Positions 28,621 to 29,952 of a stretch of DNA of 64,000 nucleotides are shown piece after piece; the stretch's first letter is position 1; each line of letters opens with the position of its first letter. The notes under the pieces are model-generated. The model did not search any database. It was not told where the DNA came from and saw nothing but the letters and a program-made list of their open reading frames with translations. This DNA is from Isoetes taiwanensis (lineage: Eukaryota > Streptophyta > Lycopodiopsida > Isoetales > Isoetaceae). The stretch lies in assembly GCA_021234155.1 (NCBI GenBank), contig JAJEKV010000039.1:13400241-13464240 (forward strand). The letters run 5' to 3'. A program made the position numbers and the translations under genes.

Positions 28621-29952
28621 TCAAGGTCGCTCTCCCTTGATGCGAGTAGCAAGATGCATATCTTGCCTCATCAGTGTTACTCGCTTTGCATGAACAGTGC
28701 AAGCCGTCGAGTCTTCAAAATGTTGCACTATTTTCTGCTCCGCCGCTTCCTGCAGTGCCAGCAGCATTTCATCCGTGACCCTCATGTCAGTCTTGAAGTC
28801 CTGCATCACTTCTCTGACTAGACGGGCAAAGGGGGCATGGGGGATTAGGAGGCCGTAGCTGCGCTGAAAATGTCGGATTTCTCTCAGTGCTCTTCTTTCG
28901 GTCTCCTTCCTGCTGAGCTTCTTCTTAGCTGGTCTCTTAGGGGCCTTGGGCTTTGGTGGTGGTGGCCTTAAGGTCTGGCTCTTCGTTGGATGGCCACCCT
29001 CGATGGCTCTGACTCTATTCTCCTGGTAGTAGGAGTTGTAAGCCTCCCACTCCTTCATGTATGCCTCGTGCTCCCGCATCTTTCGCTCGTAGATCTTTAC
29101 GGGGTCCATGACATAAGATTCTCGGGCAGGCCGGGGTTGCTTCTTCCTGTCCCACTTTGGATAAGGAGGGGGCTTCTGCACTTTGTCCGATTGCTCCTCC
29201 TCGGGCGCTATCTGCTCGGTTACCACATGCTCAACGATCGGGGGTTTGGAGGAGCCTGCCCCCTCAGTGTTGGGGTTATGGTCTTCGTCAGAATCCTCGG
29301 AGGAGGCCGGGGGCTGATCAGGTGGCCGTTCGATAATGGTGATCTTGGGGTTGGGCTTCTTTACTTTTGGGACCTCCTTGAGCTTCCTTGGGCTCCCCAC
29401 CCATTTCCCTTTCTTCTGCTTCAGTTCCTCTGCCGCTTTCGCCTCCTCCTCTTCCCTCTTCCTCTTCTTTTGTTCCCTTTTCCTTTCTCGGCATTCATAC
29501 TTTGCGATAAACGCAGCGAGGTCTGCTTCCTCCGCCGGCTCAAGCCTCGGCTCCCGGTGTTCCTCTCGTTTCTCGGCCTCCTTCTCGCGGATCCAGGCTT
29601 CGAGTTGCTCTTCAATGGTGGGCTCGGGTGTCGGTAGTCTCTGCTCCTCACGAGCCTTGGTCCTTTGTTCTCGCTGTGCTCCCTCCTCTTCTTCTTCAAT
29701 TATCTCCGTTCCTGCTTCTGAGTGCACCTCTTCTTCTCGGTCGACCTGCCGGTCTCTCTCCTCATTCCGCTCTGTTCTCTGCTGGGATCCTTCACTATTG
29801 TGCTCATTCGAGGGTTCTCCCTCACTCGAAGAAGATTGACCGTTGGGGTCAAGAAGGCGCTCCTGAAGCATGCGTCGAATCGTGCTGGAATCAAGGGCGC
29901 TGGTCGATTCGCCTGGGCGGGCTTTCCTGGCAATTTGTTTGGTCCGTGCCAT
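28621..29952 (-). CDS. ORF1: retrotransposon-encoded histone H3/CENH3-like protein with a long insert
   Basis: 443 codons, no interruption; ATG in a good context (AAACATGG). Residues 2-10 (ARTKQIARK) match the H3 tail at R2, K4, R8 and K9. T6 is Ile, S10 is Ala. Residues 11-330 are a charged insert: acidic 45-90, a probable coiled coil 112-183 with basic run KREQKKRKR, an acidic serine patch 217-225, and a helical stretch 282-310. A basic linker (330-354) leads to a complete H3 fold, residues 355-443 (28624-28890), aligning without gaps to H3 A47-A135 with about 52 of 89 identical by my hand count. ALREIR, QDFKTD, HAKRVT and GER are H3-like. EIRHFQ, LLIP, APFARLVRE, LLALQEAAE and VTLM resemble plant CENH3, but loop 1 lacks the CENH3 lengthening. 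It would act in chromatin. Alternative: inert captured gene. Confidence 0.93.
   Translation of the reverse strand: MARTKQIARKARPGESTSALDSSTIRRMLQERLLDPNGQSSSSEGEPSNEHNSEGSQQRTERNEERDRQVDREEEVHSEAGTEIIEEEEEGAQREQRTKAREEQRLPTPEPTIEEQLEAWIREKEAEKREEHREPRLEPAEEADLAAFIAKYECRERKREQKKRKREEEEAKAAEELKQKKGKWVGSPRKLKEVPKVKKPNPKITIIERPPDQPPASSEDSDEDHNPNTEGAGSSKPPIVEHVVTEQIAPEEEQSDKVQKPPPYPKWDRKKQPRPARESYVMDPVKIYERKMREHEAYMKEWEAYNSYYQENRVRAIEGGHPTKSQTLRPPPPKPKAPKRPAKKKLSRKETERRALREIRHFQRSYGLLIPHAPFARLVREVMQDFKTDMRVTDEMLLALQEAAEQKIVQHFEDSTACTVHAKRVTLMRQDMHLATRIKGERP

What the first reader, a model, noticed from the sequence alone, without database searches (positions are those of the whole stretch)
28621..29952. 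A retrotransposon ORF that is a histone H3/CENH3-like protein
Seen: a 443-codon open frame inside an LTR element, with ARTKQ and ARK at the start and a gapless 89-residue H3 fold as its very end (ALREIR, QDFKTD, HAKRVT, GER). By hand about 52 of 89 residues equal canonical plant H3, and several of the differences (EIRHFQ, LLIP, APFARLVRE, LLALQEAAE, VTLM) are the residues plant CENH3 uses. Known: I can recall no described plant LTR retrotransposon lineage with a histone gene. Inference: the element captured an H3 or CENH3 gene and places its own nucleosome component, perhaps to bias integration, escape silencing or reach centromeric chromatin.
Basis: partly seen in the sequence, partly recalled or inferred. 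Interest (0 to 1): 0.97.

Follow-up and report, generated by a model that had tools for sequence, protein, structure and literature searches.

The report
Jumping gene carrying its own histone
A retrotransposon family in one large eukaryotic genome carries its own version of histone H3, the protein that packs DNA, and selection has kept that histone part intact, which suggests that the element meddles with its host's chromatin.

Summary
Window 28621-29952 (-) is a 443-codon frame ending in a gapless 89-residue H3 fold (PF00125, 97.8 bits; 52 of 89 residues equal host H3). It lies between the primer-binding site and gag-pol of a 13-kb LTR element with a chromodomain integrase. It is no one-off: the same genome holds at least 94 further copies of this frame and 3,295 exact matches to a pattern for the H3 stretch HAKRVTxMxxD (reversed control 0). 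Of 20 other long H3 frames chosen by profile score, 17 have gag or RT downstream on the same strand. The fold is the most constrained part of the frame (dN/dS 0.04-0.09). In the window's subfamily the H3 tail MARTKQTARK persists about 330 residues before the fold. CENH3 ancestry is undecided: some residues are shared, loop 1 is canonical, and the tree neither supports nor rejects it. Most likely ORF1 is an element-made H3 variant that pairs with host H4 and enters nucleosomes; the use (integration targeting, anti-silencing, cDNA packaging) is inference. Ten text searches found no retroelement with a histone.

The parts
30603..32082 (-). 5' LTR (TG...CA)
   Evidence: blastn self-match to 3' LTR, 88.8%; ends read
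30589..30601 (-). primer-binding site TGGTATCAGAGCA (initiator-Met type, name recalled)
   Evidence: sequence
30325..30396 (-). palindrome 1 ahead of ORF1
   Evidence: -30.8 kcal/mol, z -6.45
30158..30229 (-). palindrome 2 ahead of ORF1
   Evidence: -32.7 kcal/mol, z -7.28
30054..30061 (-). TATAAATA, 109 nt before the ORF1 ATG; proposed internal promoter
   Evidence: same spacing 108-111 nt in 7 copies
28621..29952 (-). ORF1, 443 aa, H3-type histone with long linker
29923..29952 (-). H3-tail-like start (MARTKQIARK here; MARTKQTARK in 15 of 20 fetched copies)
28624..28890 (-). H3 fold, residues 355-443
   Evidence: dN/dS 0.074
28409..28481 (-). palindrome between ORF1 and ORF2
28209..28281 (-). 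palindrome between ORF1 and ORF2
28012..28019 (-). TATAAATA, 122 nt before the ORF2 ATG
26465..27897 (-). ORF2 region, unknown protein, in at least three frames (27439-27897, 26583-27518, 26465-26830)
   Evidence: no Pfam; relatives downstream of H3 frames
22949..25195 (-). CCHC (below cut-off), protease, RT, RNase H
22515..22940 (-). integrase zinc-binding part (H2C2)
21458..22507 (-). integrase core, SH3-like part and chromodomain (PF00385, 43.3 bits)
20519..20529 (-). polypurine tract GGTGGGGAGAA
   Evidence: sequence
19044..20518 (-). 3' LTR; flanks CAGCT and CATCT (4 of 5) may be the target duplication

Best explanation
ORF1 is a histone H3 variant encoded by a lineage of chromodomain-bearing Ty3/gypsy LTR retrotransposons. 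Shown: its place in the element, the H3 match, a large family in the same genome, purifying selection on the fold, and in the window's subfamily retention of the H3 tail motif and of the residues that join two H3 molecules. Inferred: it pairs with host H4, forms (H3-H4)2-type tetramers with itself or host H3, and enters nucleosomes on the element's DNA or on chosen host chromatin. Most likely use (inferred, about 0.35 by itself): an element-made chromatin platform that helps integration or survival, for example read by the element's own integrase chromodomain through the ARK tail, with the long linker as the element-specific part.
For: PF00125 97.8 bits. At least 94 further loci with ORF1, 65-94% identical; 3,295 motif matches, control 0. 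dN/dS: fold 0.074 against 0.165-0.232 for the rest of ORF1 in 21 window-type copies; fold 0.039 with RT 0.029, gag 0.088, linker 0.238 in the A type; 0.089 for B type in a sample not chosen by score. H3-H3' residues 0.99-1.00 equal to host H3 over groups (classes recalled) and C110, H113, A114, K115, R116, D123, L126 read in 20 of 20 copies. 17 of 20 long H3 frames have gag or RT downstream on the same strand, ORF2 in 19 of 20. Fold and RT distances agree (Mantel 0.81, 9 A types). Chromodomain present.
Against: No expression, protein or chromatin data. In the window type only 0.49 of H4-facing and 0.64 of DNA-contact positions equal host H3, with changes such as Y99K and L103H, so H4 pairing is not assured. 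A type lacks the ARTKQTARK tail, so a K9-reading model cannot be general. 60 of 95 ORF1 matches carry a stop. The AlphaFold model of the fold is poor (pLDDT 62.8, pTM 0.39). The copies used for dN/dS were picked from best-scoring lists.
Confidence: 0.62

Rival explanations
2. Packaging protein: the histone fold coats cDNA or the preintegration complex, like a private histone or nucleocapsid, without entering host chromatin.
For: Basic linkers and a DNA-binding fold in a frame upstream of gag; DNA-contact positions 0.83-0.90 equal to host H3 in A and B types.
Against: The H3-H3' residues are the best kept, which fits octamer-like assembly better; gag has its own zinc knuckle region.
Confidence: 0.15
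3. The window-type fold comes from a captured CENH3 and sends the element to centromeres.
For: RHFQ, LLIP, APF, VTLMR as in plant CENH3 (recalled sequences); C with plant CENH3 is not rejected (AU p 0.286).
Against: Canonical loop-1 length, ARTKQTARK tail, no grouping with CENH3; no CENH3 gene of the host could be recognised among 150 scored of 7779 candidates; A and B types are near-canonical.
Confidence: 0.12
4. Passenger: a captured H3 without function, multiplied with the element.
For: Many copies are broken: 60 of 95 with stops (my count), 22 of 40 not in frame.
Against: Fold dN/dS 0.04-0.09 while the linker next to it is at 0.16-0.24. Gene conversion with host H3 would not explain it: synonymous pS to host H3 is 0.80-1.02.
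Confidence: 0.04

Closest known systems
Orchid Ty3/gypsy elements with a captured AlkB/2-ODD m6A demethylase frame (PMC9289625; passages and section 12 seen)
   Same: LTR retrotransposon with an additional frame from a host gene kept over many copies
   Different: Enzyme of RNA, not a histone. That paper's screen of 121 angiosperm genomes reports 15 extra domains; the section names nine, none a histone; six are not named there.
Bracovirus H4 of Cotesia (PMC5423620, start of abstract in listing; passage in PMC9145170)
   Same: Core histone encoded by a mobile or viral genome that joins host nucleosomes and acts through its tail
   Different: H4, in a polydnavirus of a wasp, without retroelement machinery
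Histones of large DNA viruses (PMC9145170, two passages seen; details recalled)
   Same: Histone folds in selfish genomes
   Different: DNA viruses; the words retrotransposon and retrovir do not occur in that review's main text
Chromoviruses (chromodomain Ty3/gypsy elements; PMC2864245 seen in listing)
   Same: RT, RNase H, integrase and C-terminal chromodomain
   Different: No histone frame between PBS and gag known to me (recalled)
LTR elements with a frame of unknown function before gag: Retrosat2 ORF0 (PMC3485330, abstract start in listing), Ogre/Tat ORF1 (recalled)
   Same: Extra frame ahead of gag-pol
   Different: Those frames have no histone fold that I know of
CENH3 / CENP-A (sequences recalled)
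   Same: H3 fold with a variable N-terminal part; RHFQ, LLIP, VTLMR
   Different: Here canonical loop-1 length, ARTKQTARK start, 330-residue linker, carried by a retrotransposon

Membership tests
Histone H3 (fold) | Score over Pfam's core-histone cut-off with best match to H3 | tested here: met
   97.8 bits against 26.4; the 60 PDB rows shown of 175 are H3
Histone H3 (fold) | Residues of the H3-H3' four-helix bundle kept (classes recalled) | tested here: met
   (0.99-1.00); 20 of 20 copies
Histone H3 (fold) | Pairs with H4 and forms nucleosomes | not testable with these tools
   needs biochemistry; AlphaFold model of the fold alone poor
CENH3 | Groups with CENH3 in a tree | tested here: inconclusive
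   does not group, not rejected (AU 0.286 and 0.287); five recalled CENH3s only
CENH3 | Longer loop 1 than canonical H3 (feature recalled) | tested here: not met
   gapless against canonical H3 over the fold
CENH3 | Found at centromeres | not testable with these tools
   no ChIP data
Chromovirus (Ty3/gypsy) | RT, RNase H, integrase, and a chromodomain after integrase | tested here: met
   PF00078, PF17917, PF00665, PF00385 over cut-off, in three frames
Chromovirus (Ty3/gypsy) | RT groups with chromoviruses in a tree | not tested
   no reference RTs at hand
LTR retrotransposon | Two LTRs, PBS, PPT, target duplication | tested here: met
   target duplication only 4 of 5 letters
Virus-encoded histones | Histone gene in a mobile genome kept by selection | tested here: met
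   but the carrier is a retroelement, not a DNA virus

The most novel reading that the evidence does not exclude
A long-lived retrotransposon lineage builds its own chromatin: it makes an H3 variant that co-assembles with host histones on its cDNA or at chosen sites, its integrase chromodomain can read its own H3 tail, and it has turned over several versions of this histone (near-canonical A/B types, CENH3-like C type, D type).
Probability: 0.25. Interest if true: 0.98.

Novelty: new variant of a known kind. Interest (0 to 1): 0.93.

Why it matters
If ORF1 enters nucleosomes, a selfish element supplies a core histone to its host's chromatin from a very large copy number. That would be a new move in the contest between transposons and silencing, a possible route by which H3 variants arise, and a natural source of selected H3 sequences with long insertions between tail and fold. 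It would also make testable how retroelement DNA is packed into chromatin after it enters the nucleus.

Tried and rejected
Protein database (5.8 billion): three searches. Whole ORF1 and the fold alone return canonical H3s, several of them tandem or fused (sequences seen); residues 200-345 return nothing at E 0.001. So no annotated relative of ORF1 was found, but only proteins sharing 5-letter words are scored, only 8000 candidates. Viral contigs: no relative of ORF1 or of the RT frame. ORF2 of L023 has no PDB match; ORF2 (two copies) and ORF3 (one copy) have no Pfam family over the cut-off. The structure model was too poor to search with. Rejected: chance frame; H3 pseudogene beside a TE; passenger (dN/dS). 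Considered: ORF1 as a separate insert bounded by the palindromes; but a palindrome pair and TATAAATA precede both ORF1 and ORF2, and the ORF1 block recurs in other copies, so it looks like a promoter block. A host CENH3 was looked for and not recognised (a spliced gene would match exon by exon). A control count of histone H4 motifs did not complete, so I cannot say whether other core histones are also carried. Host species: not identified; my guess of a charophyte such as Chara rests on no call. Literature: ten searches of open-licence PMC showed no retroelement with a histone; listings only, except passages of PMC9145170 and passages plus one section of PMC9289625.

Full report
1. The observation. 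Window 28621-29952, read on the minus strand, is a 443-codon frame. Pfam's core histone model covers residues 327-439 at 97.8 bits. PDB H3 chains align to residues 315-442, without gaps over the fold. The last 89 residues share 52 with the host's canonical H3. In 100 mononucleotide shuffles of the element the longest stop-free run was 213 codons.

2. The element. LTRs at 30603-32082 and 19044-20518 (88.8% by blastn; 84 transitions, 58 transversions; 31 gap openings) bound a 13,039-bp minus-strand element with an initiator-Met-type PBS, a polypurine tract and a possible 5-bp target duplication matching in 4 of 5 letters. Order 5' to 3': LTR, ORF1 (H3), ORF2 (unknown, in at least three frames), CCHC-protease-RT-RNase H, then integrase and chromodomain in two further frames, LTR. 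ORF1 is unbroken while ORF2 and pol carry frameshifts. Differences between the LTRs are patchy: the first 300 columns have at most 2 substitutions per 100, others up to 23, so decay and assembly error cannot be told apart.

3. A block ahead of ORF1. Two 72-nt palindromes and a TATAAATA 109 nt before the ATG precede ORF1; two 73-nt palindromes and a TATAAATA at 122 nt precede ORF2. The four palindromes fold at -30.8 to -32.7 kcal/mol, z -5.9 to -7.3. Of the 10 window-type loci among the 20 longer ones of the position-listed sample (L052-L054, L056-L059, L063, L065, L067), eight have the promoter block and five of these also the palindromes; L052 and L057 have neither. In the seven of them where a start was found, TATAAATA lies 108-111 nt before it. 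I read this as an internal promoter; no expression data exist here.

4. The family in its own genome (1,658,258,908 bases, 1110 contigs). The histone profile gave 8705 first-look candidates, 150 scored: 15 rows at 164-165 bits, of which the eight fetched are canonical H3; the other 135 score 144.5-154.7 bits, many in open frames over 400 codons. ORF1 as query: 98 rows at 95 loci, the window's own included; main matches 65-94% identical; 62 of 95 reach from residue 1 to at least 435; 60 of 95 hold at least one stop (my counts; only the best candidates of 23,304 were scored). A degenerate 33-base pattern for HAKRVT-x-M-x-x-D (x after T: I, L, M or F) has 1655 + 1640 exact matches, 0 + 0 for the reversed pattern. 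These include the host's own H3 genes; none of the 40 places fetched looks like one (by eye).

5. Other members. I fetched 20 of the rows with long frames, 10 kb each, a choice biased to good profile scores. In all 20 the fold ends a 400-494-codon stop-to-stop frame (in L014 the frame runs 23 codons past it). Downstream on the same strand 17 of 20 have gag (at least 60% of the query) or RT; the other three are L013, L019 (9% of gag) and L021. ORF2 is present in 19 of 20, not in L011; ORF3 is matched in 14 of 20. L023 and L027 have a gag-pol frame still open at the end of the fetched stretch, over 1200 codons. A, B and B2 types share an N-terminal domain of about 170 residues and an H3 from about residue 37 on that is near-canonical (L024 75 and L028 78 of 89). 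The window's C type has the H3 tail and another linker; blastp found no similarity to the A/B domain.

6. The window's own subfamily. From the full-length rows I picked 20 by hand; 15 of these are stop-free, against 35 of 95 in the list, so the pick leans to intact copies. All start MARTK, 15 with MARTKQTARK exactly. Pooled Nei-Gojobori dN/dS over 210 pairs of 21 sequences: fold 0.074, residues 1-24 0.232, 25-150 0.221, 151-250 0.231, 251-354 0.165. Three D-type copies begin MARTKQT or MARTKRQ (L049, L051, L055) and one B-type MARTKGT (L061).

7. Selection elsewhere. A type: fold 0.039 (17 sequences), RT 0.029 (9), N-terminal domain 0.080 (17), ORF3 0.081 (11), gag 0.088 (13), ORF2 0.164 (16), linker 0.238 (17). 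A first count gave a median of 0.036 and a maximum of 0.121 over 131 pairs. Because those loci were picked by profile score, I also took the first 40 of the 100 places listed for the pattern, which are ordered by contig. 18 of 40 are in frame over the 66 codons ahead of the motif, 4 of these with a stop; B type 0.089 over 21 pairs; C type pN 0.106 with pS 0.74, too saturated for a ratio, over 28 pairs; A type one pair only. So the constraint holds without choice by score, although conditional on an intact motif.

8. Origin. In a tree of 44 folds the C clade has 100/96 (with D 83/77), the A+B clade 100/98, beside canonical H3; recalled CENH3s lie elsewhere. AU tests reject neither one clade of all element folds (p 0.219; 0.115 without D), nor C with plant CENH3 (0.286), nor C with all CENH3 (0.287). 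RT of the window is 84-86% identical to the four A types compared, while the folds are 52-55% identical: the C fold either changed fast after one capture or came from a second. L025 has a B2 fold far from A (pS 0.80-0.85) but an RT close to A (pS 0.32-0.46), a sign that ORF1 is exchanged between elements. Fold and RT distances otherwise agree (Mantel 0.81 for 9 A types, 0.91 for 11).

9. What it probably does. The residues joining two H3 molecules are the best kept, 0.99-1.00 equal to host over groups (classes recalled, and some rows were located by a motif that overlaps them). But C110, H113, A114, K115, R116, D123 and L126 are read in 20 of 20 copies, which were chosen without the motif. In C, H4-facing positions are 0.49 and DNA contacts 0.64 equal to host, which counts against simple interchange with H3. 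This favours a protein that still makes H3-H3 contacts, hence tetramers and nucleosomes, over a mere DNA-binding fold. The use is open: I rank a chromatin platform for integration or survival first, anti-silencing second, packaging third. The structure model did not help (pLDDT 62.8, pTM 0.39).

10. Known or not. A screen of 121 angiosperm genomes for extra domains in LTR retrotransposons reports 15; the section read names nine of them, no histone (PMC9289625). The main text of a review of viral histones holds neither 'retrotransposon' nor 'retrovir' (PMC9145170). Ten text searches found no such element. Subscription papers, including a genome paper of the host if one exists, were not seen. 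Only one genome was searched, so the spread among species is unknown.

Noticed in passing
26465-27897 (-) and L023:4564-5973 (-): ORF2, a protein of about 440-490 residues after the H3 frame in 19 of 20 loci, without Pfam or PDB match, dN/dS 0.164.
   Followed up: partly
L024:5634-6152 (+), L027: ORF3, 172-aa frame between ORF2 and gag, matched in 14 of 20 loci, no Pfam match, dN/dS 0.081.
   Followed up: partly
28209-28281, 28409-28481, 30158-30229, 30325-30396: Paired long palindromes with core AAACTAAAGTTTAGTTT ahead of ORF1 and ORF2, kept in other copies; role unknown.
   Followed up: partly
19044-20518 against 30603-32082: LTR differences are patchy, near-identical stretches broken by short scrambled ones; decay or assembly error.
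   Followed up: no
L025: B2-type H3 frame with an RT close to A-type elements: ORF1 seems to move between elements.
   Followed up: partly
L049, L051, L055, L071, L082, L088: A fourth group of folds (D: EEGNLCAIHAKRVTLMPKD, judged by eye), mostly broken; three begin MARTKQT or MARTKRQ.
   Followed up: partly
2687-3926 (-) and 11672-13563 (-): Frames that look by eye like another gypsy RT/gag fragment and a LINE-type RT.
   Followed up: no
34278-37439: Direct repeats 34278-35399 and 35444-36565 (98.3%) and a self-complementary stretch 36566-37114 (78%).
   Followed up: no
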